Source: Desulfobacteraceae bacterium (GTDB lineage Bacteria; Desulfobacterota; Desulfobacteria; Desulfobacterales; BuS5). Taken from it: DNA of 12,035 nt. Numbering within the stretch: position 1 is the stretch's first letter; each line of letters opens with the position of its first letter. The notes under the pieces are model-generated. The model was not told the DNA's origin. It worked only from the letters and a program-made list of their open reading frames with translations, and did no database searches. The DNA lies in contig JAUVKE010000047.1 of NCBI GenBank assembly GCA_030592105.1, positions 1 through 12,035 of the forward strand, written 5' to 3'. A program made the translations under genes and the position numbers. Shown one piece after another: positions 2 through 11,834 of this stretch.

Positions 2-877
2 CACTGGGAAGCCTGCAAGATCAGAAATATGGCCCGCCTTATTGAAGAAAAAATGGGACGGCCCCATCTTTCAGCCACATATGAACGGTGTGTTGACGAA
101 GGGATCAATGCTTTTGAAAGACGGGAACATGGCAATAACTGGATTACAACATTTATCTGGATGGATGGAATGGATGCCATTGTAGCACTTAAAAAACTTG
201 TTTTTGATGAAAAGAAATATACCATGGAACAGGTTTTAGAGATGCTTACTGCCAATTGGGAAGGATATGAAAAAGAACGTATGGATTTTGTCAGAACTCC
301 GAAGTGGGGAAATGACGATCCCTATGCCGACGAAATAATCGTGAAAATTCATGAAAGAATGCGTGATGAAGTCTGCCTTCCTGTTCAGTGCTGGGGTTCA
401 ACCGCCAAAGGTGTTCCCATGGTGCCCCAGAATATTGCAGCATACACAGTTGCTGGTGCTCTTCTAGGAGCTTTGCCAAATGGACGGCGCATTGGAGATA
501 CATGCTATGATGGTGGATGTTCGCCCGGAGCAGGCCTGGACAAAAAAGGACCCACAGCAGTATTGCAGTCTGTTGGAAAGCTTACCCATGAAAATATGTT
601 CAGAGCAAATCTTTTAAACCAGAGGCTTTCACCTTCTCAGCTCATCGGTGACAAGGGTTTTGATGTATGGAAATCATATATTGAAACATGGTGCGACCTT
701 GGGATTAATCATGTTCAATTTAACATGGTCGACAACGAAACTCTGCTAAACGCCCAGAAAGAACCTGAAGATTATAACGAGCTTGTTGTACGGGTTGCCG
801 GCTACAGCGCATTATTTACCGGACTCAACAAAAGAACCCAGGATACAATAATTGCACGTACTATTCAGGAAATATAA
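2..877 (+). CDS. X-succinate synthase (AssA/MasD/BssA/NmsA family) catalytic subunit, C-terminal part
   Basis: This is the 3' end of a glycyl radical enzyme that adds a hydrocarbon radical to fumarate. The frame is open to the left edge, so the ATG at 29 is internal and about 291 residues of an enzyme usually near 860 are visible. The glycyl radical loop RVAGYSA lies at about 791-811, with the radical glycine codon at 800-802, 24 residues before the stop, which is the usual place. PKWGNDD (about 299-319) is a block conserved in bssA/assA-type genes. The cysteine that carries the thiyl radical lies more than 300 residues before the glycine in this family and is outside the window. Small accessory-subunit genes follow, and a matching activating enzyme is at 3429. 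The substrate class is unresolved: the rubredoxin-like small proteins downstream favour alkylsuccinate synthase, but naphthylmethyl- or benzylsuccinate synthase is possible. Confidence 0.93.
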   Translation, partial: HWEACKIRNMARLIEEKMGRPHLSATYERCVDEGINAFERREHGNNWITTFIWMDGMDAIVALKKLVFDEKKYTMEQVLEMLTANWEGYEKERMDFVRTPKWGNDDPYADEIIVKIHERMRDEVCLPVQCWGSTAKGVPMVPQNIAAYTVAGALLGALPNGRRIGDTCYDGGCSPGAGLDKKGPTAVLQSVGKLTHENMFRANLLNQRLSPSQLIGDKGFDVWKSYIETWCDLGINHVQFNMVDNETLLNAQKEPEDYNELVVRVAGYSALFTGLNKRTQDTIIARTIQEI

Positions 878-1252: not shown

Positions 1253-1486
1253 ATGGCTAGACACGGAGACTGCAAACATTTTATTCCAGATACTGCAAAC
1301 ATGGCTGCATCAGAAGGTATGTGCATGGAAATGGCGGATGAGGATGGAATGCCTGCTATCGTTAACATTTTTAATGATATTGAGGGTTGCGAAAAATATG
1401 AAGAAGCAACCCGAATTAAAACTGATACATCTGAGTTCACATGGGACAAGGACGTTCGTGCTGTACGCGGTTTTGAGGAAAAATAA
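1253..1486 (+). CDS. Small Fe-S-type accessory subunit of the X-succinate synthase (BssC/AssC-like)
   Basis: This 77-residue acidic protein has cysteines at 7, 24 and 46 and the N-terminal pattern H4-x2-C7 (HGDCKHF), followed by a GMCMEM segment and a GCEKYEE segment. Small subunits of benzyl- and alkylsuccinate synthases bind one HiPIP-like [4Fe-4S] cluster, normally through a CxxC plus two distal cysteines. Here the first CxxC cysteine position is occupied by histidine, so a His plus three Cys ligand set is likely. A strong Shine-Dalgarno (AAGGAG, 8 bases upstream) fixes the start. Its position after the catalytic gene supports the subunit role. The assignment to the C-type rather than the B-type small subunit rests on resemblance recalled by eye and is less certain than the general role. 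Confidence 0.7.
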   Translation: MARHGDCKHFIPDTANMAASEGMCMEMADEDGMPAIVNIFNDIEGCEKYEEATRIKTDTSEFTWDKDVRAVRGFEEK

Positions 1487-1514: not shown

Positions 1515-1745
1515 ATGAAATGTTCAAAATGTAAATTTGAAGGGGGGAGAGAAGACTGGCATTTCATAGGAAATGCGAGTCTTACCGGCTTGTTAGCTTC
1601 AAGGAAATGTCCTGATTGCGGACATATTGAAATCTCAAACGAGATGGAAGCTGACGAAGCCTATAAAGGCCCTCGACCATGGGGGCTGGACACGTTTAGA
1701 GGACGTGTGTTTAAGGGGAAGAAAAAACCCGTAACCGATGTATAA
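1515..1745 (+). CDS. Rubredoxin/zinc-ribbon-like small protein 1
   Basis: This 76-residue protein has two metal knuckles, C3-x2-C6 and C32-x2-C35 (KCPDCGHIE), spaced as in rubredoxin-like or zinc-ribbon folds. The C-terminal half is basic and rich in glycine and proline and has no further cysteines. The knuckles would hold one Fe or Zn ion. It starts 28 bases after the previous stop and shows no clear Shine-Dalgarno, so translation may depend on coupling. It is related to the next gene (same knuckles, same spacing class, similar length), suggesting tandem duplication. Alkylsuccinate synthase loci are known to encode an additional small subunit beyond the two of benzylsuccinate synthase, and this gene or the next is a candidate for it. 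No enzymatic role can be read from the sequence. Confidence 0.72.
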   Translation: MKCSKCKFEGGREDWHFIGNASLTGLLASRKCPDCGHIEISNEMEADEAYKGPRPWGLDTFRGRVFKGKKKPVTDV

Positions 1746-1760: not shown

Positions 1761-1985
1761 ATGGAAACAAAATGTGAGCATTGTGATTATGTAGGTCCAA
1801 AAGAAACTTTTACTTATTTGTACAATATCAGACTGGACGATGGAGCAAGCTGGCACGAATGTCCCAAATGCCATGGATGGAATTTTCTTTCGGCAACTGA
1901 CGGTTCGAGCCTAAGCTTTGAGGAGACTGCACGGGGATATAAAATTCATTCCGATCTTGGAGTGGGTGTTAGTAAACCGATTTAA
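1761..1985 (+). CDS. Rubredoxin/zinc-ribbon-like small protein 2
   Basis: This 74-residue protein has knuckles KCEHC near the N-terminus and ECPKC about 33 residues later, again a single metal-binding ribbon. The best start is the ATG at 1761, behind the strong Shine-Dalgarno GAGGAGG at 1748-1754. An in-frame TTG at 1758 directly before it is not needed. The gene begins 15 bases after the stop of its paralogue, so the two are surely co-transcribed. Residues after the second knuckle differ from the first copy: this one ends in a glycine/valine-rich tail (DLGVGVSKP). It probably binds Fe or Zn and may be an electron-transfer or structural subunit of the succinate synthase complex. That function is inferred from position only. 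Confidence 0.72.
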   Translation: METKCEHCDYVGPKETFTYLYNIRLDDGASWHECPKCHGWNFLSATDGSSLSFEETARGYKIHSDLGVGVSKPI

Positions 1986-2114: not shown

Positions 2115-2288
2115 ATGGCCAAAGATAAATACGAAGGCGAGAAATGGTTCTTCCCCTTTGAAGATGATCCTGAGAACGGAGACCTTGTGGAAAGAGTACT
2201 TGATGCGCGCTGCGCTTACTGGAAATCGACTCCAATGAAAAAAAGTGATGTCCCCCCTGGAGTTAAAATAGGTTCGCCAGTTAAATAG
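2115..2288 (+). CDS. 57-residue small protein, possible further synthase subunit
   Basis: The start is the ATG at 2115, preceded by AGGAG (2103-2107) with 7 bases of spacing. An in-frame upstream ATG at 2025 would add 30 low-complexity residues with no ribosome site and is rejected. The protein is rich in aromatic and acidic residues at the N-terminus (KWFFPFEDDPENG) and has a Pro/Lys-rich tail. It has only one cysteine, in the DARCAYW segment, so it cannot hold a [4Fe-4S] cluster alone. The FFP segment followed by acidic residues loosely recalls benzylsuccinate synthase small subunits, which raises the possibility of a small subunit that has lost its cluster. It is the last gene before a strong hairpin. 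Its function is not recognised. Confidence 0.65.
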   Translation: MAKDKYEGEKWFFPFEDDPENGDLVERVLDARCAYWKSTPMKKSDVPPGVKIGSPVK

Positions 2289-2550: not shown

Positions 2551-2928
2551 ATGACTATACTTCCTGATACAGTATTAGATGCTTTAGCTGAACCTGCTTC
2601 TGTTACCATGGTTGCCACAGTTGATGGCCAGGGGAAGCCCAATACAGTGGTGATATCAACCATTGCTGTTATTGATCTTGAAACTCTGGCTTTTGCCGAT
2701 GCATGCCTCGGCAAAACCAAGGCAAATTTAAGGGAGACTGGAAAACTTACAGTAACAGTTGCAACATCTCAAGGCACAGCTCACCAGATACAATGTACAT
2801 TTATCCACTTTGACAACAAAACACCTTTGTTTGACACATGGCATGATGCTGTCTGGAATAGAATGAACATACAGATCAAAGGTGTAGCAATCGCCAAAGT
2901 TGAAAGTGTCTCCGCCGCAGATTTATAG
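2551..2928 (+). CDS. Pyridoxamine 5'-phosphate oxidase-like split-barrel protein 1
   Basis: This 125-residue single-domain protein has the pattern of small PNPOx-type flavin-binding split barrels. A short N-terminal helix is followed by a first strand pair VTMVATVDGQGKPNTV, a second pair with ADACLGKTKANL (the usual flavin-phosphate region with Lys, Thr, Asn and Leu), and LTVTVATSQG. Members bind FMN, F420, heme or similar and act as dimers, and their reactions are often unknown. No Shine-Dalgarno is visible before the ATG. The 5' flank is the MITE ending at 2528, so the native leader may have been replaced. A start at the internal Met 20 would cut the first strand and is unlikely. It stands 36 bases before a second protein of the same fold. 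The cofactor and substrate cannot be inferred. Confidence 0.75.
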   Translation: MTILPDTVLDALAEPASVTMVATVDGQGKPNTVVISTIAVIDLETLAFADACLGKTKANLRETGKLTVTVATSQGTAHQIQCTFIHFDNKTPLFDTWHDAVWNRMNIQIKGVAIAKVESVSAADL

Positions 2929-2964: not shown

Positions 2965-3357
2965 ATGAAAATCCCAGATGATGTTAGAGAAATCCTCAAG
3001 GATTCAGCAACCGTCAAGATGATCAGCACAGCCAATACCCACCTTGATATCAGCCTGGAAAGGGTAAAGTATGTGGAAATACTTGATGATAACATTATCC
3101 TTCTTCCATATTTTAACGAGAAGAATAACACTTTAAAAAATATTCAACAAAACAGTGCTATCTCCCTGGCTGTATTACGCCCTCCCATTATTGCTTTTAA
3201 ATTAAACGGGACTTTAAAGGAGATTGACAAAACAGAAAAATATTTGAAATATTTTAATACAACCCATGCAGGTCAAACAATATCTGGAGTCATAAAAATC
3301 AAAATTGTTGAAATTCATGCATTAACAATGGCTATTTCAGGTGATAAAATCGCCTGA
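2965..3357 (+). CDS. Pyridoxamine 5'-phosphate oxidase-like split-barrel protein 2
   Basis: This 130-residue protein is organised like its upstream neighbour: a helical N-terminus (IPDDVREILKD), a strand pair VKMISTANTHLDIS, an ILLPYFNEKNNTLKNI segment at the position of the flavin-contacting KTxxNL region, then SAISLAV and an extended strand region ending VVEIHALTM-like (IKIKIVEIHAL). It is clearly more divergent than the first, and some flavin-contacting residues may be lost. Like the first, it lacks an obvious Shine-Dalgarno. The two may form a heterodimer, since split-barrel proteins place the flavin at the dimer interface. They sit between the small-subunit genes and the activating enzyme, which suggests a supporting role in the same pathway, but nothing in the sequence proves it. 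Confidence 0.62.
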   Translation: MKIPDDVREILKDSATVKMISTANTHLDISLERVKYVEILDDNIILLPYFNEKNNTLKNIQQNSAISLAVLRPPIIAFKLNGTLKEIDKTEKYLKYFNTTHAGQTISGVIKIKIVEIHALTMAISGDKIA

Positions 3358-3428: not shown

Positions 3429-4370
3429 ATGGCCGAAAAATGTCTTATTACAAATGTGCAACGGTATTCAATCAACGATGGGCCAGGGATACGAACCCTC
3501 GTTGTTACCATGGGCTGTAATCTCAAATGCCTCTGGTGCCATAATCCTGAAACCATAAGTGGAAAAAATGAGCTATATTGGAGAACAACACTTTGTGTGC
3601 AGTGTGGTCTGTGCATAGAGGCTTGTCCCCAGGAGGCCATATTGCCGCCAATACCTGTGGAAGAAGCAAGGGAAGAAGGGAGTACTTATCATAAAATAGA
3701 CAGAACAAAATGTGATCTCTGTATGAAGTGTGTTGACGCGTGTATTTATGATGCCCTTGCCCCTGCAGGAAATTACTTAACTTCTGATGAAGTACTTGAT
3801 GAAGTCGAAAGGGATAAGCCATTTTATAAAAATTCCGGGGGGGGAATGACCATAGGTGGAGGAGAACCCACAACCCATATAAATTTCCTCATGGAGCTTC
3901 TGGTTAAAGGAAAAGAAAAAGATCTTCACATCTGTCTTGATACCAACGGTATTTCATCCTGGAGTTCATATGAAAAGACTATTCCATATGTTGATCTTTA
4001 TTTAATAGATTTTAAAAATATGGATACAAAAAAGCATGCCAAAGCAACTGGGGCAGGAAATGAAAAAATTCTTGAAAATGTAAGGACCCTTTCTGAAAAA
4101 GGATGCAAAATCAGAGGTAGAGTTCCTGTTATATATGATTTTAACGATAATGATGAAAATTTTGAGCAGCTTGCAGAATTTATTAACAGTCTTCCTAACC
4201 CTGTAGAAGGGATTGACCTTCTCCCCTTTCATAACTGGTGCCAGAATAAATACAGATGGCTTGGGTTAGACTGGCCCCTGGAAGATGAAGAGAGCATGGA
4301 TCCAATGGAAGTAGAAGGGTTTAAGGAGATTCTTGCTTCCCGCGGCATTGTCTGTACCATAGGCGGATGA
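3429..4370 (+). CDS. Glycyl-radical-enzyme activating protein (AssD/BssD/MasG-like radical SAM enzyme)
   Basis: This 313-residue radical SAM enzyme uses S-adenosylmethionine to create the glycyl radical on the synthase catalytic subunit. The SAM cluster motif is C30-x3-C34-x2-C37, in the family-typical context DGPGIRT...GCNLKCLWCHN. It is followed by a two-cluster ferredoxin insert: C56-x2-C59-x2-C62-x3-C66 and C95-x2-C98-x2-C101-x3-C105. The SAM-binding GGGEP comes after that (in MTIGGGEP). The ferredoxin insert distinguishes these activases from the pyruvate formate-lyase type. The start is fixed by CTGGAGGT (3417-3424) just upstream. Length and motifs are complete, so the gene looks functional. 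It is separated from its presumed target by the small-subunit genes, a repeat and the two split-barrel genes, unlike bss operons in which the activase precedes the subunits. Confidence 0.94.
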   Translation: MAEKCLITNVQRYSINDGPGIRTLVVTMGCNLKCLWCHNPETISGKNELYWRTTLCVQCGLCIEACPQEAILPPIPVEEAREEGSTYHKIDRTKCDLCMKCVDACIYDALAPAGNYLTSDEVLDEVERDKPFYKNSGGGMTIGGGEPTTHINFLMELLVKGKEKDLHICLDTNGISSWSSYEKTIPYVDLYLIDFKNMDTKKHAKATGAGNEKILENVRTLSEKGCKIRGRVPVIYDFNDNDENFEQLAEFINSLPNPVEGIDLLPFHNWCQNKYRWLGLDWPLEDEESMDPMEVEGFKEILASRGIVCTIGG

Positions 4371-4693: not shown

Positions 4694-5545
4694 ATGGCTC
4701 AGGACACATCATTATCAGATATTCTCATCCCGGAAAAAGACCCCCATTATTTTTTATCGACGGAAATTTCATCCAATCTTAACAGGTTTAATACATTATC
4801 CGAAGAATTTCCCACAAATCTTCTTATTGTTGGCAAACAGGGCTGCGGGAAGTCGACACTTGTAAAACAATTCGCAGCACGTCACAACCGGCCCCTTGCA
4901 ACTTTTCAGGTGGGGATCCTTTCCGAACCTGGCCAGCTTTTCGGGGAACTCCGGCTAAAAGATGGAGAAACATATTACCAGCAGTTTCTTTTTCCCCAGG
5001 CCATAGCCACACCAAACTGCGTAATTCATTTAGAAGAAATAAACCGCCCGGAACATCCCAAGGCTTTGAATATGCTCTTTTCCATTTTAAGTGATGACCG
5101 CCAGGCATGGCTTGACGATCTGGGCAATGTTCAAGTCGCAGATGGGGTTATCTTTTTCGCAACCCTTAATGAGGGAGAGGAATTCAGTGGCACGGAAATG
5201 CTTGACGCTGCTCTAAAAGACAGATTTTACGTAGTCTCCATGGACTACCTTCCCCTTAGCGTTGAAAAGAGGGTGTTAATGCTCAAAACAGGTATTCCTG
5301 AAGAAAAAGCTCAAAAGATTGTCTCTATTTTAAATAATCTAAGGTATAACGCAAAAATGCCCATTTCCGTATCCACAAGACACAGCCTCATGATAGCAAG
5401 ACTTGTGAAAGCAGGAGCAAGTATCAGGGAAGCTTTGATTTTCAGCTTGCAGATGAGCAAGGAAGCTCTTGAGGCAATTCTGCTTTCTGTTCAAGTGGAA
5501 ATGGATGAGACAAAGGTGCCTGAATATGCCTATGAATTATATTAA
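4694..5545 (+). CDS. MoxR-family AAA+ ATPase 1 (BssE/NorQ/CbbQ-like chaperone)
   Basis: This 283-residue cytoplasmic AAA+ ATPase has Walker A GKQGCGKST (47-55), a Walker B strand CVIHLEE (109-115), sensor 1 Asn159 in FFATLNEGEE, an arginine finger Arg177 in LKDRF, and a sensor-2 region VSTRHSL near residue 225. The Walker B acidic pair is Glu-Glu rather than the usual Asp-Glu. MoxR ATPases form hexameric rings that work with VWA partners to activate or remodel metalloenzymes. A homologue, BssE, is encoded in bss operons. The following VWA gene overlaps it by 20 bp, so the two are translationally coupled and probably form a complex. GGAG lies 9 bases before the start. A close paralogue is at 7251. 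The target is inferred to be the glycyl radical synthase. Confidence 0.9.
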   Translation: MAQDTSLSDILIPEKDPHYFLSTEISSNLNRFNTLSEEFPTNLLIVGKQGCGKSTLVKQFAARHNRPLATFQVGILSEPGQLFGELRLKDGETYYQQFLFPQAIATPNCVIHLEEINRPEHPKALNMLFSILSDDRQAWLDDLGNVQVADGVIFFATLNEGEEFSGTEMLDAALKDRFYVVSMDYLPLSVEKRVLMLKTGIPEEKAQKIVSILNNLRYNAKMPISVSTRHSLMIARLVKAGASIREALIFSLQMSKEALEAILLSVQVEMDETKVPEYAYELY

Positions 5546-7235
5546 TCGGCTGGATATATATTGCCAGCAGACTCTGGACAACATATGGAATAAACCGAGC
5601 TGGGTTTTTAAGGGAAATTCAAGTTACTGGAGAATGACCCAGGCTGGCTATGAATCAGCAGAGCTTGCAGGTGTCCTTAAATCTCTCAACACAGTTATCG
5701 GCCATGTTGGAATGAATGTGGGACGTGTAACCTGGTCGGGCCAGGTATCCACGGAAATCGACAAGGAATCCCTTGTCCTTCCAGCTGAATTTATATTAGG
5801 AGATTATCCTGTTCCCCCCGGTAAAATGGATGTACTTATTGGAGTCTCCATACACGAAGCACTTCGCCAGAGCGAATGGAGCGGTTTTGTATGGAAAGAG
5901 ATGCTTAAAAAAGATCAAAGTTTCAGCAAAGTTTCAAATTATTTAAAAAAAGATACTCTATGGAAATTTTTTTCTGTTGCTGAAAACATATATCTTGATA
6001 AAAAAGCTTCCAGGAATATTTTAGGGGAATATACTAAAAAAGCCCGCATCGCCTTGATCCCTGGAATGTTAAGGGACCCCGCAAAAATTCCCACAGCATG
6101 GCATCTGTTCGATCTTTGGGAGCAGATTGCCCTTGACCAGGTTACATATTTAAACCTGAATAAATTATATAATGGGCCATTGGATATTCTGCAAAAAGAG
6201 GTGGATACCATTGCATTGATTGCTCACAACAAACAATCTGTGACAGTAAGATGTGGTATGAGGGCGGATGTCTATCTGGATATCTTTAAAAAAATTGAAG
6301 AATTTATGCCAGAGTGGGAAAAAGAGCCCGTGGCTTTTTTTTCACGGGGTCCTGGAACAAAGGACATCAAGAAGAAAAAAAGAAAAAAAGATGAGGATAC
6401 AAGATCATACACGGCCATTAGTACAGATATGTGGGAGGATATTAATCTTGAGCTTGCCAGGGATACTACAGATCTAACCCCCTTAATACAATTAGCCTGT
6501 AATAACGATGAAAAAGTCTTGCGTACATCACTCACTGACTTCACTGTACCTGCCAATGCGTATACGGACAGACGACTGGTCCAACGGCTGAAAAATGTTT
6601 TTCAATATTATTCTCAAAGAATAAAAAAAGTCAATCGTGGTCTTGAAAGCGGGAAAATAGACAGAAGGCGGCTGTACCGTGCTCCCATTGATGGGAGATG
6701 TTTTAAAATTGAACAAAAGCTGGCTGAATTTGCATGGAATTTTACAGTTGTTGTTGATGCATCCATGTCCATGGCAGGGTTTAAATGGAAAGTTGTTGAA
6801 AATACCATGAGCTCACTTCGTAAAGCCCTGGAAGGGTACAGAAATAATCTCAGGGTATTTGGTTATTTTGAATGGGATGGTGTCTGTTTGATATCTGAAC
6901 TTTTAAGACATAACATTCTCTACTCCATTGCCCCCACAGGGAGAACCCCGTCCGGCCAGGCTATAATCGCAGCGGCTTTATTAATGCCCACGGACAATAG
7001 TAAGCCCAAGTATATTCTCCATATCACAGATGGTGAATCAAATGCAGGGGCTGACGTTCAGTATGCCATCGATTTTTGCAAAAAAGAAAAGATAGATATG
7101 ATAACATTAGGATGCAGTTATAAAGAAAAAGAAAAAATGGTCAAACAATATGGAAAACAGGTACAGTTTCTTGACTCCATTGAAGAACTGCCAAAGGCTA
7201 TTGAACGACTGTTTCAAAGGATTTTAAAATATTAA
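5526..7235 (+). CDS. VWA-domain protein 1 (NorD/CbbO/BssF-type partner of MoxR ATPase)
   Basis: This protein of about 569 residues has an N-terminal helical domain, a Lys-rich linker, and a C-terminal von Willebrand A domain with a complete MIDAS: D411-A-S413-M-S415, T474 (in PTGRTPSG) and D502 (in ITDGESN). A metal ion bound there usually mediates contact with a partner or target. In the N-terminal domain YPVPPGKMDVLIG leads to HEALR (residues 110-114), which resembles a zinc-protease HExxH with the last His changed to Arg. The linker DIKKKKRKKDED is strongly basic. The start at 5526 is preferred because AAAGGTG (5512-5518) lies 7 bases upstream. ATG 5532 is an alternative, and the longer frame from 5469 would run far inside the ATPase gene. 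It overlaps the ATPase by 20 bp. There is no signal peptide or membrane segment. Confidence 0.88.
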   Translation: MPMNYINRLDIYCQQTLDNIWNKPSWVFKGNSSYWRMTQAGYESAELAGVLKSLNTVIGHVGMNVGRVTWSGQVSTEIDKESLVLPAEFILGDYPVPPGKMDVLIGVSIHEALRQSEWSGFVWKEMLKKDQSFSKVSNYLKKDTLWKFFSVAENIYLDKKASRNILGEYTKKARIALIPGMLRDPAKIPTAWHLFDLWEQIALDQVTYLNLNKLYNGPLDILQKEVDTIALIAHNKQSVTVRCGMRADVYLDIFKKIEEFMPEWEKEPVAFFSRGPGTKDIKKKKRKKDEDTRSYTAISTDMWEDINLELARDTTDLTPLIQLACNNDEKVLRTSLTDFTVPANAYTDRRLVQRLKNVFQYYSQRIKKVNRGLESGKIDRRRLYRAPIDGRCFKIEQKLAEFAWNFTVVVDASMSMAGFKWKVVENTMSSLRKALEGYRNNLRVFGYFEWDGVCLISELLRHNILYSIAPTGRTPSGQAIIAAALLMPTDNSKPKYILHITDGESNAGADVQYAIDFCKKEKIDMITLGCSYKEKEKMVKQYGKQVQFLDSIEELPKAIERLFQRILKY

Positions 7236-7250
7236 CCATGGAGGCCAATA

Positions 7251-8096
7251 ATGGATAATAAAGACCTTTTAACGCCACCTGAGCTGGACCCATTTTTTTA
7301 TATTCAGGAAGAGACCTCTGATGTACTTAAAAGCCTGGAAAAATTATCCAACACACATCCGGTCAATGTATTAATGACAGGACGTCAGGGCTGTGGAAAA
7401 TCGTCTTTAATACGCCAGTTTGCAGCTTTTTTTAAAAGACCCCTTGCTGTTTTTCAGATTGGGCAACTTTCCGAGCCAGGACAGTTATTTGGAGAGCATG
7501 GGCTAAAATGCGGGGAAACATTTTATCAGGAATTTTTGTTCCCTAAAGCCATATCAACTCCGGGATGTGTTATCCATTTAGAAGAGATAAACAGACCTGA
7601 GCATCCCAAGGCGCTGAACGAACTTTTTTCGGTTCTTTCCGAAGACAGGTCAATATGGGTGGATCAACTGGGTCAGGTAAAAGTAGCTGAGAATGTTGTT
7701 TTTTTTGCCAGCATGAATGAAGGAGAAGAATTCACAGGAACAGACGCCCTGGATGTTGCATTACGGGATAGATTCTATATAATCCCTGTTGATTATCTCC
7801 CCTATGAGATTGAAAAGCAGGTATTAATAAATAAAACCAACATTAATGAAAAAGATTCTGAGCTGGTTTTAAAAGTATTGGGGCACTTAAGAAGTGATCC
7901 TCAAATAGATTCAACAATCTCTGTGCGCCACAGCCTGATGATATCTGAACTCATGGGCGCAGGAGCAGGATTAAAGGAATCGATAATTTACAGCCTTTCC
8001 ATATCCCGTGATATTCTTGAAAGTATACTGTTGTCCCTTCATGTTGAAACAAAGGATCATAAAATTAAATCGAATCAGTATAAACGATTTGTATAA
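7251..8096 (+). CDS. MoxR-family AAA+ ATPase 2
   Basis: This 281-residue protein is a paralogue of the ATPase at 4694, with about three in five residues identical over the core by eye. Walker A is GRQGCGKSS (44-52), Walker B is CVIHLEE (106-112), sensor 1 is Asn156, the arginine finger is Arg174 in LRDRF, and the sensor-2 arginine is Arg226 in VRHSL. All catalytic positions are kept, including the unusual Glu-Glu Walker B, so it should hydrolyse ATP. GGAGG (7240-7244) lies 6 bases upstream, and it starts 15 bases after VWA 1. It is the last gene of the plus-strand operon and faces the minus-strand VWA 2/radical SAM pair across a structured junction. It may be the ATPase for VWA 2, or it may co-assemble with ATPase 1 in a mixed ring. 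Confidence 0.9.
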   Translation: MDNKDLLTPPELDPFFYIQEETSDVLKSLEKLSNTHPVNVLMTGRQGCGKSSLIRQFAAFFKRPLAVFQIGQLSEPGQLFGEHGLKCGETFYQEFLFPKAISTPGCVIHLEEINRPEHPKALNELFSVLSEDRSIWVDQLGQVKVAENVVFFASMNEGEEFTGTDALDVALRDRFYIIPVDYLPYEIEKQVLINKTNINEKDSELVLKVLGHLRSDPQIDSTISVRHSLMISELMGAGAGLKESIIYSLSISRDILESILLSLHVETKDHKIKSNQYKRFV

Positions 8097-8175
8097 GCAG
8101 GGAATGGAAACAAAAAAATCCCCTGTGGTTTCCCTGCTCGTAGGGGCAACCACAGGGGATTGCCCTACGAGCAGG
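8097..8175. terminator. Interlocked palindromes at a convergent junction, probable bidirectional terminator or REP-like element
   Basis: Two long inverted repeats are interleaved. Stem 1 is a perfect 14 bp (8117-8130 with 8148-8161, core CCCCTGTGG). Stem 2 is a perfect 13 bp (8133-8145 with 8163-8175, core CTGCTCGTAGG), extendable by 3 bp past one bulged G. The order is A-B-A'-B', so the RNA could form a pseudoknot or switch between two hairpins. A third alternative pairs 8097-8104 with 8130-8137. It lies between the stop codons of the convergent genes ending at 8096 and 8196. Confidence 0.65.
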
Positions 8176-8195
8176 TTTCATTGAAAAGTTATGAA

Positions 8196-9302
8196 TTAAA
8201 ATAATATCCCCGAACTTTCAAGTTCCTCATTTGAGCGACCACGCCAGCACAGTGGGTCTTCTTCTAAAATATTATTATTTAAAAAATAGGCATTTCTTCT
8301 GCATCCACCGCAGATATATCGGTAATTACATTTACCACATCTTCCCTTAAGATTTTCACGGTTCCTTATATCTTTAAGTATCTTTGATGTCTGCCAGATA
8401 CGCGACAGGGGGGTTTCCTTAAGATTACCAAGTTTCCCTTCCCCGTATCGTCCACACAACCTGAGTTCTCCTGTTGACGAAACAAACAGGGAATAGATTC
8501 CTGTAAAGCATCCTACACAAAAATCATAAAACCCTGAACCAAAATCAGAATTTGTGCAAATCTTCTGTGAGCCTTTATCCTCAGAAATAATATATCTGTT
8601 CTCAAAGCCTATGGAGGAAACCCCAAGGTCAGCCTGTTTTTTAAAAAGAAGCCTTTGCATATCACGTCGATTTCTTCTGGTCAGCACAAGATTATCCTTC
8701 CCCTTTCCCCGGCCCCCTGGGAAAAATTCCTGAACATGCAAAGCTGAGTCAAGCTCTCCTGCCTTATCAATTATATCTGAAAGCTGCGAGTAATTTGTCA
8801 TGGAAATAGTAAATGAAATACGGACAGTTATCCCTGCAAGTTTTAAATATTTTACAGCGGCAAGTGCCCGGTCATAACTACCCTCACCCCTGTTGAAATC
8901 ATGGGTAATACGATCCAGACCATCAATGCTGATCATCATCTGCTTAACACCTGCTGCGGCAATCTCTCTGGCAAGGTTTTTATCAATAAGATAACCATTT
9001 GAAACAATCCCAACACTTCTAAAACGGCCTGAAGCATATGATGCAAGTTCCAGAATATCATCCCGCACCAAAGGTTCGCCCCCACCAAATGAAAGGTGCA
9101 TGACTTCAGCTTCAGCAAGATTGTCAATAACAATTCTTGCCTCCTTTGTGGTGAGCTCACCTTTAGCGGGCTCACCTGCGGCGGCTCCGCACAACTTACA
9201 CCTGAGATTGCAGGCCTGGGTAACGCTGAGACCGGCAATTAACGGGACAGGTTTTTTTACTGCTTCATAGTATTTTTTTTTGGTTTTTTCTAAGAAATTC
9301 AT
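8196..9302 (-). CDS. Radical SAM/SPASM-domain protein
   Basis: This 368-residue radical SAM enzyme has the SAM cluster motif C31-x3-C35-x2-C38 in TQACNLRCKLCG and the SAM-binding GGGEP (73-77). Nine further cysteines lie at 249, 262, 265, 283, 322, 325, 331, 334 and 352. The C322-x2-C325-x5-C331-x2-C334 run and the distal C352 are typical of a SPASM domain holding auxiliary [4Fe-4S] clusters. SPASM enzymes mostly modify peptides or proteins (anaerobic sulfatase maturase, PqqE, RiPP maturases), while related ones act in heme or heme d1 synthesis. Its ATG overlaps the stop of VWA 2 (ATGA), so the two are made together. It is not the glycyl radical activase: it lacks the ferredoxin insert of the enzyme at 3429. 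A role in modifying a component of this locus is inference. Confidence 0.9.
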   Translation of the reverse strand: MNFLEKTKKKYYEAVKKPVPLIAGLSVTQACNLRCKLCGAAAGEPAKGELTTKEARIVIDNLAEAEVMHLSFGGGEPLVRDDILELASYASGRFRSVGIVSNGYLIDKNLAREIAAAGVKQMMISIDGLDRITHDFNRGEGSYDRALAAVKYLKLAGITVRISFTISMTNYSQLSDIIDKAGELDSALHVQEFFPGGRGKGKDNLVLTRRNRRDMQRLLFKKQADLGVSSIGFENRYIISEDKGSQKICTNSDFGSGFYDFCVGCFTGIYSLFVSSTGELRLCGRYGEGKLGNLKETPLSRIWQTSKILKDIRNRENLKGRCGKCNYRYICGGCRRNAYFLNNNILEEDPLCWRGRSNEELESSGILF

Positions 9303-10999
9303 CTTAATAAATTAGCCCTCAGTACCGCCTCTAGCTGCTCAGGTAAAAGATCTATGGAATCTATCAAAATGGCCCTGTCATGATACTGCTTTTCAAGAAG
9401 ATCTCTTGTTTTTTCTTCAAAATACGTCCCAATGGTTACAACGTCCACACCTTGCTTATCACAAAATTCAAGGCTTTTTTGAACACTTAAGCCGCAGTTG
9501 GGTTCACCATCTGTAAGGTGTACAATGAGCCTTTTTTTATCTTTGGGCATTATTGAGGCTGTTGCTATAATAGCCTGGCCAGTAGGTGTCCTTCCCCCCG
9601 GACGCACAGTGTAAAGCCTGTTGCCGTATACAAGTGCATTAACTTCACAAATTCCTGCTCTCTCATAATAGCAAAGAAGGTCCAGCCTGTTCCCTGTACC
9701 TTTTACAGCTTCAAAGAGTGAAAGAAAAAGCCTTTCGGTCTTGGCCCACTCTTTTCCACCCCCTGGCAACCCTCCGGTCATTGACGCGGAACCATCAACC
9801 AAAATTGCTATATTTCTTGTATTATCATGGGTCAAATATTCTTTTTTTCTAAAAATTTTTCCATCCAAAGAATATCTGTGAAGACGTCTCCCATCTATTT
9901 TTCCTAATAATTGAGCACGATTATAAAAATAACGTCTGCTTCTGTGGGATCGCTGTACCCTAAAAATCTTTTTTAAACGTGCAACCAGTGCTTCATCAGC
10001 CGTTATCCTGCACGGGATTGTTGCCCTGCCGTAAACAGTATCCATAATCCGCCACTGTTCTTCTTCCCCTGCAACATCTGCAACCTCCTGATTTATACTC
10101 TTTTCATCCATCTCCTCCATAATATCATTTACTCTTTGCATAAGAGCCTGATTTTCCCTCTCTGTAAAACGCCTTGCATCTGTATTTTCCTCCGACTCCA
10201 TATCCACTGCAGGGTCATCACAGGAATCTCCTTCATCTCCAGAAAATTCTTCTGCAAGTCCGGAAGCATCTGATAAAGAGTCCTCATCTACCCAGGTCTC
10301 AGCTCTTTTCAAAATTTCATTCCAGAGGTTCAAATAAATATTTGCCCTTAAAAAAGATCTTTTTGAAATCGAACTTTCACTAAGCAAAGCTTTAATTGCA
10401 TCCCTTGTATCAAGGCAAATCTGAAACAGGTCATAATACGCAGGGTTCATGTTCACGGCAAGTTTATCAAAAAAAATGTAATCTGCAAATATATGAAGAA
10501 ATGCATGAATGGTCGGTTTATCCGTATTTGATTTAAAGGGGGGTCTCACATAAGGCCAACACCTGGAAAGGTAATATTTCCAGACAGTATCTTCGGCAAT
10601 TTCTTTGGTAAAAATATCCTCTCCAATACTGATCAGCAGATCCAGAAGGTATTTATAACCTTCTGAAATTTCACCCACCTTTTTTTTAACATTTATATAA
10701 ACAATATCAGAAAGAATTTTACAGTGAAATGCCTCCCTTGCTGTAATCCCGACAAGAATATCCATTTTCCCCGGGGGAACAGGGTATTCCCCTTTTGCAA
10801 GGTTAATATCAATTCCTATCAGTAAAGGATTAGGTGTGGAAGAGGTACTCCATTCAATCGGTTTTAAATTGGTGGCTATATGTCTTCCAACTTTTCGCAG
10901 GGCATAAAGAACCCTGACAAGCTCCTGGGATTCGACAGCCGATATATTTTTTCTCCAATATTCTGAATGTCCAAAATTTAAATTATTTCTGGAAGCCAT
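9299..10999 (-). CDS. VWA-domain protein 2 (NorD/CbbO/BssF-type)
   Basis: This 566-residue paralogue of VWA 1 has the same architecture. The C-terminal VWA domain has a complete MIDAS: D402-G-S404-A-S406, T471 (in GGRTPTG) and D497 (in LTDGEPN). A block KIDGRRLHRYSLDG precedes the domain and matches VWA 1. The N-terminal domain has YPVPPGKMDILVG followed by REAFH (88-92), which looks like HExxH with the first His replaced. The linker around 236-275 is very acidic (DEDSLSD, GDEGDSCDD, MESEEN), opposite in charge to that of VWA 1. The start at 10999 is chosen because TGAGGA lies 5 bases upstream and the protein then begins at the same point of homology. A longer frame to 11062 lacks such a site. 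It is coupled to the radical SAM gene. Confidence 0.88.
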   Translation of the reverse strand: MASRNNLNFGHSEYWRKNISAVESQELVRVLYALRKVGRHIATNLKPIEWSTSSTPNPLLIGIDINLAKGEYPVPPGKMDILVGITAREAFHCKILSDIVYINVKKKVGEISEGYKYLLDLLISIGEDIFTKEIAEDTVWKYYLSRCWPYVRPPFKSNTDKPTIHAFLHIFADYIFFDKLAVNMNPAYYDLFQICLDTRDAIKALLSESSISKRSFLRANIYLNLWNEILKRAETWVDEDSLSDASGLAEEFSGDEGDSCDDPAVDMESEENTDARRFTERENQALMQRVNDIMEEMDEKSINQEVADVAGEEEQWRIMDTVYGRATIPCRITADEALVARLKKIFRVQRSHRSRRYFYNRAQLLGKIDGRRLHRYSLDGKIFRKKEYLTHDNTRNIAILVDGSASMTGGLPGGGKEWAKTERLFLSLFEAVKGTGNRLDLLCYYERAGICEVNALVYGNRLYTVRPGGRTPTGQAIIATASIMPKDKKRLIVHLTDGEPNCGLSVQKSLEFCDKQGVDVVTIGTYFEEKTRDLLEKQYHDRAILIDSIDLLPEQLEAVLRANLLR

Positions 11000-11064
11000 T
11001 TGAATCCTCATAAATAATTTTAAAACAAAATTTGAGCGAGCCCTTAGTTTCAATTTCAGCAATA

Positions 11065-11312: not shown

Positions 11313-11834
11313 TTATTGGGGCCAACCCTCAAAAGTCCTGTCCGGAAAATCAAAAATCTTTGAAAACCTTTGCCTGGAATCTTCCCTTACTTCTGCAGCC
11401 TCTTCCTGACTTATTTTTTCTGACCTGATCCACTGTTCAAGTAGTCTTCCTCCGGGTAGCCACATCTGTACTGTCTCCCTGTCGAATATCCAGGCCTTGA
11501 GCCTTTCACCGGTTCCGGCTATTTTCTCCCAAACCTGCTCCCTGTCCCTCACGTCACAATAAATCGACATTACACATTCTTCCATGCCTAGATTTACAAG
11601 GGGCTTTTTGTCATATTTAAAACAGGGTATTATTCCTGAATCAACATGGGGATCCAGAATTTTTCCAATCTTATCAAGCTTACTCCTGGAACCAAATAAA
11701 ATCCACTTGCCCCAGTAATCAAGGTATCCCTGATTTGTTAATGGTTTTTTTTTATATGCAATATAACTATATCCCTCGTATATTTGAGGATGATATCCAA
11801 ATATAAAATGCGTCTGAGGCTGGTCTATAATCAT
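11313..11834 (-). CDS. 173-residue protein of uncertain function
   Basis: This is a soluble protein with no signal peptide, membrane segment or cysteine cluster. Blocks visible are GKWILFG (43-49), a KLDKIGKIL helix, GIIPCFKYD, ECVMSIYCDVRDREQVWEKI, and a charged C-terminal helix (SEKISQEEAAEVRED). The order GKW-[hydrophobic], a helix, a K-rich strand, a hydrophobic strand with D-x-x-D, then WxxI loosely resembles small proteins annotated as putative phosphothreonine-lyase-domain proteins. That comparison is from memory and weak. A poor ribosome site (GGAT, 8 bases upstream) precedes the ATG. It is upstream of VWA 2 on the same strand but separated by a MITE and a hairpin, so co-transcription is uncertain. 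Confidence 0.65.
   Translation of the reverse strand: MIIDQPQTHFIFGYHPQIYEGYSYIAYKKKPLTNQGYLDYWGKWILFGSRSKLDKIGKILDPHVDSGIIPCFKYDKKPLVNLGMEECVMSIYCDVRDREQVWEKIAGTGERLKAWIFDRETVQMWLPGGRLLEQWIRSEKISQEEAAEVREDSRQRFSKIFDFPDRTFEGWPQ

What the first reader, a model, noticed from the sequence alone, without database searches (positions are those of the whole stretch)
4694..11062. Duplicated MoxR/VWA remodelling module with a SPASM radical SAM enzyme beside a fumarate-addition enzyme
Seen: two MoxR ATPases, two VWA proteins with intact MIDAS, and a radical SAM/SPASM protein coupled by ATGA to VWA 2, next to the synthase and its activase. Known: MoxR/VWA pairs (NorQ/NorD, CbbQ/CbbO) activate metalloenzymes, and bss operons carry one MoxR ATPase, BssE. 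Inference: one pair may load the activase or accessory subunits onto the synthase, while the second works with the SPASM enzyme on a different step, such as repair of the radical enzyme or modification of a subunit. I know of no described system with this composition.
Basis: partly seen in the sequence, partly recalled or inferred. Interest (0 to 1): 0.72.

Follow-up and report, generated by a model that had tools for sequence, protein, structure and literature searches.

The report
Second maturation module beside alkane-activating enzyme
Next to genes for an enzyme that attacks alkanes without oxygen lie two different ATP-driven protein-remodelling pairs; one is the usual helper of such enzymes, the other belongs to a separate, apparently undescribed helper set that tends to occur together with these enzymes and may be a missing piece in making them work.

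Summary
In detail: two MoxR ATPases, two VWA proteins with intact MIDAS, and a SPASM radical SAM gene overlapping VWA2, beside a fumarate-adding glycyl radical enzyme (X-succinate synthase, XSS) and its activase. The reading needs correcting. Pair 1 (MoxR1/VWA1) is the ordinary BssE/BssF-type pair: in 394 genomes of one phylum, 15 of 15 XSS genomes carry VWA1. Pair 2 is an old paralogous pair; MoxR2, though placed behind VWA1, groups by phylogeny with MoxRs next to VWA2. Its steadiest partners are not SPASM but OrfZ (11313-11834) and, in relatives, a ThiS/MoaD-like sulfur carrier and a ThiF/MoeB-like enzyme; in one genome OrfZ and VWA2 share one open frame. In the 394 genomes VWA2 occurs in 10 (8 with clear XSS), OrfZ in 11 (all with the VWA family), SPASM at 38% identity or more in 7 (all with OrfZ). 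OrfZ also sits beside a second glycyl radical enzyme class. Best reading: a second, synthase-linked NorQD-like maturation machine, perhaps sulfur-fed as in CoxD/CoxE; target and chemistry are inferred. The library searches I ran showed no description.

The parts
2..877 (+). X-succinate synthase (glycyl radical enzyme) catalytic subunit, C-terminal 291 residues; 97% identical to G001 (L100), 78% to G003 (L063), 74% to Peptococcaceae SCADC1_2_3 (L119)
1253..1486 (+). small Cys-bearing protein, possible beta-type accessory subunit (tentative; Pfam best E 0.19)
1515..1745 (+). rubredoxin-like small protein, Cys 3, 6, 32, 35 as reported for MASS delta of strain HxN1
   Evidence: paper passage; Cys positions read from the sequence
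1761..1985 (+). second CX2C/CX2C small protein
   Evidence: Cys positions read from the sequence
2115..2288 (+). BssC/TutF-like gamma subunit (24.1 bits against cut-off 25)
2551..2928 (+). PNPOx-like protein 1 (27.0 bits against cut-off 28.1)
2965..3357 (+). PNPOx-like protein 2 (26.2 bits against cut-off 28.1)
3429..4370 (+). radical SAM activase of the synthase
4694..5545 (+). MoxR1, BssE-type AAA+ ATPase, partner of VWA1
5526..7235 (+). VWA1, BssF-type VWA protein, MIDAS intact
7251..8096 (+). MoxR2, by phylogeny the partner of VWA2 although it lies 15 nt behind VWA1
8133..8175 (.). hairpin between converging operons, terminator-like
8196..9302 (-). SPASM radical SAM protein, start overlaps VWA2 stop (ATGA)
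9299..10999 (-). VWA2, second-clade VWA protein, NorD-like C-terminal half, MIDAS intact
11313..11834 (-). OrfZ, 173 aa, conserved partner of VWA2/MoxR2 and of ThiS/ThiF elsewhere; eIF4E/BLES03-like fold (tentative)

Best explanation
Two different NorQD-type AAA+/VWA machines serve one X-succinate synthase system. Pair 1 (MoxR1/VWA1) is the BssE/BssF-type pair found with these synthases in general. Pair 2 (MoxR2/VWA2) with OrfZ and SPASM, and in relatives with a ThiS/MoaD-like carrier and a ThiF/MoeB-like enzyme, is a second maturation module carried by a subset of synthase-bearing bacteria. Mechanism (inferred): the MoxR2 ring turns VWA2 by ATP hydrolysis as NorQ turns NorD, opens the synthase complex or one of its iron or Fe-S accessory subunits, and lets in a sulfur- or radical-SAM-derived change supplied by OrfZ/ThiS/ThiF and, where present, SPASM. 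Shown: gene content, intact motifs, cognate pairing by tree, co-occurrence and linkage. Not shown: physical target, chemistry, co-expression.
Against: No biochemical or expression evidence. Only 6 of 27 VWA2 genes have a GRE within 10 kb (9 with GRE or activase) against 34 (43) of 58 VWA1 genes. The mutase gene of the same pathway is near OrfZ in 4 of 42 cases. 10 of 26 VWA2 genomes gave no XSS match of 41% or more over 200 residues, all ten MAGs by record title. At the preset cut-off SPASM was in 10 of 394 genomes, 7 of them with OrfZ. ThiS/ThiF are not in the window itself, and half of the OrfZ copies were fetched through a VWA match, which inflates that count. Genome counts are not corrected for kinship.
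Confidence: 0.5

Rival explanations
1. Pair 2 and its partners mature another enzyme of the same alkane pathway or of the same organisms, for example the B12-dependent CoA mutase of alkylsuccinyl-CoA, or a tungsten/molybdenum enzyme that needs ThiS/MoeB-type sulfur chemistry.
For: In Smithella (L010) a mutase, a ferredoxin-like protein, ThiS, OrfZ, MoxR2, VWA2, SPASM and ThiF lie in a row; a mutase-type gene is within 5 kb of OrfZ in 4 of 42 cases. The SPASM protein scores best against a heme-maturase model (TIGR04545, 233 of 500 bits). Sharing a pathway gives the same co-occurrence as acting on the synthase.
Against: OrfZ with an AAA/VWA pair beside a GRE in second-class loci (L082-L084, L089), where no mutase was labelled; an OrfZ-VWA2 frame between a GRE end and MoxR2 in G023. 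GRE or activase is near OrfZ more often (13 of 42) than the mutase (4 of 42). I did not search for Mo/W enzymes genome-wide.
Confidence: 0.27
2. One pair per synthase: organisms with several synthases keep one MoxR/VWA pair for each.
For: G001, closest to the window, has several XSS genes.
Against: G020 (complete genome), G024 and G026 show one XSS match and both VWA types; G028 and G029 show two XSS matches and only VWA1 was found (the tool scored at most 2 GRE and 3 VWA candidates per genome there).
Confidence: 0.08
3. The neighbourhood is a loose island: pair 2 and SPASM lie here without functional tie to the synthase.
For: Opposite strand with a hairpin between; the module is absent from many XSS genomes (VWA2 in 8 of 15).
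Against: Co-occurrence in two separately drawn samples, repeated linkage in several phyla, and MoxR2 (behind VWA1) and VWA2 lying in two facing operons while keeping tree-matched partners.
Confidence: 0.1

Closest known systems
BssE/BssF pair of benzylsuccinate synthase operons
   Same: AAA+ then VWA gene behind a fumarate-adding GRE; BssF about 580 aa (PMC5874301, passage), VWA1 569 aa; VWA1 is in all 15 XSS genomes of the sample
   Different: Pair 2 is a separate clade with other partners; the passages of the bss papers that I saw describe one pair only
NorQ/NorD of nitric oxide reductase
   Same: MoxR-type ring with a VWA partner; VWA2 C-half matches the NorD VWA and finger part, MoxR2 matches NorQ
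   Different: Target is not a nitric oxide reductase; OrfZ, ThiS/ThiF and SPASM have no counterpart there (recalled)
CoxD/CoxE of CO dehydrogenase
   Same: AAA+ and VWA proteins tied to ATP-dependent sulfuration and metal insertion (PMC4240915, abstract and passages)
   Different: No Mo/Cu enzyme among the window's genes; the sulfur link here rests on ThiS/ThiF neighbours only
MASS of Azoarcus HxN1 (alkylsuccinate synthase)
   Same: Catalytic subunit with gamma, beta and rubredoxin-like delta subunits (PMC12358834, abstract and passages); the window has a BssC-like and two CX2C/CX2C small proteins
   Different: Two delta-like genes and two PNPOx-like genes in the window, and pair 2; the HxN1 locus itself was not compared

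Membership tests
NorQ/NorD-type MoxR AAA+/VWA pair | MoxR-type AAA+ with Walker A/B and Arg finger | tested here: met
   for both MoxR1 and MoxR2; PDB search for MoxR2 only
NorQ/NorD-type MoxR AAA+/VWA pair | VWA protein with MIDAS and NorD-like VWA/finger half | tested here: met
   MIDAS in both; NorD match for VWA2; VWA1 not folded
NorQ/NorD-type MoxR AAA+/VWA pair | physical complex and remodelling of a target enzyme | not testable with these tools
   needs protein work
BssE/BssF (pair 1) | AAA+ then VWA gene in an operon with a fumarate-adding GRE and activase | tested here: met
   window order; MoxR1 within 10 kb of 47 of 58 and GRE or activase of 43 of 58 VWA1 genes, one of the 43 by a 26-bit fragment only; a BssD-like locus (L066, TIGR04003 437.7 bits, cut-off 496.45) also in the VWA1 clade
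BssE/BssF (pair 1) | sequence kinship to the named BssF of a toluene degrader | not tested
   no BssF record reached; the plasmid search gave none
BssE/BssF (pair 2) | same clade as the VWA and MoxR of synthase operons | tested here: not met
   VWA2 in the other clade, SH-aLRT 100; MoxR2 in a clade without VWA1-adjacent MoxRs, 99/95
X-succinate synthase, MasD cluster III (propane/butane type) | catalytic subunit in one clade with strain BuS5 and a Peptococcaceae single cell | tested here: inconclusive
   window groups with SCADC1_2_3 and G003 (6-row clade 100/100); G003 stands for BuS5 only through its VWA2 (P0022); cluster III as in PMC4703814 (passages); BuS5 MasD itself not compared; that the single cell of the paper is SCADC1_2_3 is my assumption
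CoxD/CoxE-type sulfurating AAA+/VWA system | sulfur transfer onto the target's cofactor | not testable with these tools
   only the ThiS/ThiF neighbours (30 of 42 OrfZ copies) point this way
SPASM peptide (RiPP) maturase | score above a curated maturase cut-off | tested here: not met
   best TIGR04545 233 of 500 bits; no curated cut-off reached among the 25 of 79 NCBIfam models shown
eIF4E/BLES03-like fold (OrfZ) | clear structural match | tested here: inconclusive

The most novel reading that the evidence does not exclude
X-succinate synthases of this lineage carry an undescribed sulfur-derived modification or cofactor, made by OrfZ with a ThiS-type carrier and a ThiF-type enzyme and in some lineages by SPASM radical SAM chemistry, and inserted by the MoxR2/VWA2 machine; without it the synthase stays inactive outside its native host.
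Probability: 0.12. Interest if true: 0.85.

Novelty: new variant of a known kind. Interest (0 to 1): 0.58.

Why it matters
X-succinate synthases start the oxygen-free breakdown of oil and gas alkanes, and their accessory proteins are poorly understood. A second maturation module that occurs with these enzymes in several phyla names concrete genes (mox2, vwa2, orfZ, spasm, thiS, thiF) to add to expression constructs or to delete in native strains. It turns the question of what these synthases need beyond an activase into a direct test.

Tried and rejected
Recent tandem duplication: rejected by the VWA and MoxR trees. One pair per synthase: against one-synthase genomes with both pairs. Module carried by viruses or plasmids: no relative found in viral contigs by pattern scan with the VWA2 family, and none in plasmids with VWA1. 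OrfZ family: no Pfam match at E<=1, no solved relative by sequence better than E 0.095. Idea that the 591-aa Smithella neighbour was a tungsten oxidoreductase: it is a methylmalonyl-CoA-mutase-type protein.

Paper searches for a description of the module (what I saw is the listing, unless passages are named in the report): alkylsuccinate synthase/von Willebrand/MoxR (20 of 44 listed, none of the 20 holding alkylsuccinate synthase); benzylsuccinate synthase/AAA+/BssE/VWA (20 of 44 listed); MasD/gene cluster/ATPase/chaperone (2 papers); BuS5 (2 of 2 and 12 of 31 listed); MoxR/fumarate addition/glycyl radical (10 of 35 listed); bssE/bssF/assE/VWA (10 of 159 listed, nearly all unrelated); SPASM with succinate synthase (3 papers); hydroxybenzylsuccinate synthase (7 papers); succinate synthase with von Willebrand anywhere in a word (20 of 56 listed, of which only PMC7285207 concerns such an enzyme). 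So 'undescribed' holds for the listed part of these searches in an open library only.

Dropped rows and cut-offs: the SPASM search of 394 genomes was cut at 1e-60 and gave 10 genomes; 7 of the 10 lie inside the OrfZ set, the other three (G078, G110, G159) have matches at 36% identity; '7 of 7' uses 38%, chosen afterwards. XSS means 41% identity or more to the L063 GRE (in one search over at least 200 residues; G016 and G023 have shorter matches at 54% and 51%, not counted); four further genomes (31-34%) were not counted as XSS. In the 394-genome searches the tool scored only the top candidates per genome (up to 9 for OrfZ, 2 for GRE, 3 for VWA, 5 for SPASM); completeness of 90% was asked for but is not printed. 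P0017 (full length), P0026, P0030 and P0047 were left out of A1; P0017 without a reason. In A2 the rows of L018 and L047 begin at an inner Met. VWA tree: ORFs of 450 aa or more with over 150 bits, plus 22 of 125 database proteins. MoxR tree: ORFs of 250 aa or more with over 250 bits; loci L080 and later left out except L098, L099, L128; 'next to' means a VWA starting from 200 nt before to 400 nt behind the MoxR end, so some true neighbours with long open frames (L022, L061) count as 'no VWA next'. L015, L046 and L054 count as VWA2 by the tree although phmmer scored them nearer to VWA1. One search keeps one locus for each distinct OrfZ, so ThiS is undercounted (L122, L125, L127 show it for three copies), and 21 of its 42 copies come from loci fetched by a VWA match. 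The fused OrfZ of G023 is not among the 42.
Full report
What is there. The window holds, on the plus strand, the end of a glycyl radical enzyme (2-877), small subunit-like genes, two PNPOx-like genes, an activase (3429-4370), MoxR1 (4694-5545), VWA1 (5526-7235) and MoxR2 (7251-8096). Facing them on the minus strand are OrfZ (11834-11313), VWA2 (10999-9299) and a SPASM radical SAM gene (9302-8196). ATPase, MIDAS and radical SAM motifs are intact. VWA2 and SPASM overlap as ATGA, MoxR1 and VWA1 overlap by 20 nt, MoxR2 starts 15 nt behind VWA1, and a strong hairpin separates the converging operons (z -4.15).

Which enzyme. The GRE end is 97% identical to a GRE in G001 (genome of L001, a Desulfobacteraceae MAG), 78% to G003, 74% to Peptococcaceae SCADC1_2_3, and 50-55% to GREs of D. 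alkenivorans, D. alkanivorans and Smithella SCADC. PMC4703814 (passages) places strain BuS5 (propane and butane only), a Peptococcaceae single cell and a propane enrichment in MasD cluster III. The window fits this group, but BuS5 MasD itself was not compared.

Pair 1. The VWA tree of 103 proteins splits into VWA1 (62) and VWA2 (41) with SH-aLRT 100, so the two are not a recent duplication. VWA1 is the usual companion of the synthase: GRE or activase within 10 kb of 43 of 58 VWA1 genes (one of them only by a 26-bit fragment), MoxR1 of 47 of 58, many contigs being cut. [quoted passage not shown] A bssF insertion mutant of Azoarcus CIB did not grow on toluene or m-xylene, with downstream genes not excluded; that paper saw no similarity of BssF to proteins of known function (PMC5874301, passages). 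No named BssF sequence was compared; a BssD-like locus (L066) falls in the VWA1 clade.

Partners of pair 2. OrfZ was found in 23 of 26 genomes with VWA2-clade loci and in 0 of 12 genomes whose loci had shown only VWA1; six further genomes in that call, four of them chosen because OrfZ had been seen, all had it (29 of 44 in total). Around 42 distinct OrfZ copies, within 5 kb: ThiS- or ThiF-like genes 30, AAA/VWA genes 28, GRE or activase 13, SPASM 11, mutase 4, any module gene 41. Because 21 of these copies lie in loci fetched through a VWA match, the other 21 are the fairer count: ThiS or ThiF 13, AAA/VWA 7, GRE or activase 6, SPASM 3. In Smithella (L010) the order is mutase, ferredoxin-like, ThiS, OrfZ, MoxR2, VWA2, SPASM, ThiF. 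In L002, a closer relative of the window, it is ThiS, a 103-aa protein, a second GRE-activase-like radical SAM, a 91-aa protein, a B12-type-like radical SAM, OrfZ, VWA2, SPASM. L001 shows the same from the small protein on, so the window's minus operon probably continues beyond 12035 with these genes.

A fusion. In G023, a Dehalococcoidia MAG, OrfZ and a VWA2-clade protein are read in one uninterrupted frame of 756 aa: OrfZ profile at 3-153 (E 2.3e-40), VWA profile at 196-751 (E 6.8e-124) (the same stretch is held as L046 and L096). A GRE end lies 500 nt before it and a MoxR2-clade gene 76 nt behind it. It is one draft genome, but it ties OrfZ, VWA2, MoxR2 and a GRE together in a few kilobases.

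Link to glycyl radical enzymes beyond XSS. OrfZ also lies beside a second GRE class (38-41% to the window over the C-terminal part, two members compared). There it comes with a ChlI-like AAA protein, a shorter VWA protein and one or two activases (L082, L083, L084, L089); with SPASM, activase and GRE in L081; and L132 holds SPASM, activase and weak OrfZ and GRE pieces. The two members tested fall below every curated GRE cut-off shown.

Sampling. 394 genomes of the phylum of D. alkanivorans were drawn by the tool, the same number and description in four searches. XSS of 41% identity or more: 15 genomes. VWA family: 18, namely all 15 plus G011 (whose XSS is in pieces), G301 (a 34% GRE on the same contig) and G105. 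VWA1: 17; VWA2: 10. OrfZ: 11, all among the 18, and 8 of 11 among the 15 XSS (hypergeometric 7.5e-11, kinship ignored). SPASM: 10 at the preset cut, 7 of them in the OrfZ set; at 38% identity or more 7 of 7. In 95 genomes of the order of Peptococcaceae SCADC1_2_3: VWA family 12, OrfZ 10, GRE matches at E<=1e-90 13; OrfZ inside VWA 9 of 10 (not G469), VWA with GRE 10 of 12 (not G007, G016). There VWA genes of G452, G495, G509 and G512 lie near GREs of only 35-36% identity. The sampled groups were chosen because they contain known members.

Against. In the first set, 10 of 26 VWA2 genomes had no XSS match of 41% or more over 200 residues: G007 none at all, the others lower or shorter matches; all ten are MAGs by title. 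VWA2 is less often near a GRE (6 of 27; 9 with activase) than VWA1 (34 and 43 of 58). Close SPASM relatives also occur away from the module: in G006 (L086) with an old-yellow-enzyme-type protein, an MmgE/PrpD-type protein and a CoA-ligase-type protein, in G008 (L087) in a similar gene order, and in L088 and L094. So SPASM is not tied to VWA2.

How it may work. NorQD: the MoxR ring is proposed to turn the VWA half, stretch a linker and so let iron into its target (PMC13036017, abstract and discussion). CoxD/CoxE: AAA+ and VWA proteins act in ATP-dependent sulfuration and copper insertion (PMC4240915, abstract and passages). By analogy, pair 2 would open the synthase complex or one of its small iron proteins, and the ThiS/ThiF/OrfZ set would bring sulfur. 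MASS has a rubredoxin-like delta subunit in the region where the activase binds (PMC12358834, abstract and passages), and the window has two CX2C/CX2C proteins, which makes them candidate targets. This is inference.

Verdict. The composition has a standard part (pair 1) and an unusual, apparently undescribed part (pair 2 with OrfZ, ThiS/ThiF in relatives, and optional SPASM). It is a new variant of a known kind of maturation system, with a clear test programme.

Noticed in passing
window 1515-1745 and 1761-1985: Two CX2C/CX2C small proteins; the first has Cys at 3, 6, 32, 35, the positions given for the rubredoxin-like MASS delta of strain HxN1. The window thus seems to have two delta-like subunits.
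   Followed up: partly
window 2551-2928 and 2965-3357: Two PNPOx-like proteins in the synthase operon; a PNPOx-like LssP of unclear role is reported in a limonenylsuccinate synthase operon (PMC12583861, passage). L023, L024 and L063 also have such genes.
   Followed up: partly
L001:151-3810 and L002:4738-9054: Upstream of OrfZ in the nearest relatives: a ThiS/MoaD-like protein (L002), a 103-111 aa protein, a second GRE-activase-like radical SAM protein, a 90-91 aa protein and a B12-type-like radical SAM protein of about 640 aa; with SPASM three radical SAM enzymes in one row.
   Followed up: partly
L046:743-3010 (same stretch L096:7246-9513): OrfZ and a VWA2-clade protein in one 756-aa open frame, between a GRE end and a MoxR2-clade gene.
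   Followed up: yes
L082, L083, L084, L089: A second, unassigned GRE class (two members tested, below all curated NCBIfam cut-offs shown) with one or two activases, OrfZ, a ChlI-like AAA protein of 516-522 aa and a VWA protein of about 375-401 aa (cut off in L084).
   Followed up: partly
L086 and L087: Close SPASM relatives (57% and 55% identity) in Firmicutes follow a second SPASM gene (in two pieces in L087); in L086 they lie with an old-yellow-enzyme-type flavoprotein, an MmgE/PrpD-type protein and a CoA-ligase-type protein.
   Followed up: no
L053:12663-12962: A ThiS-like gene directly behind GRE, VWA1 and activase in a BssD-like locus, so the sulfur carrier is not confined to pair 2.
   Followed up: no
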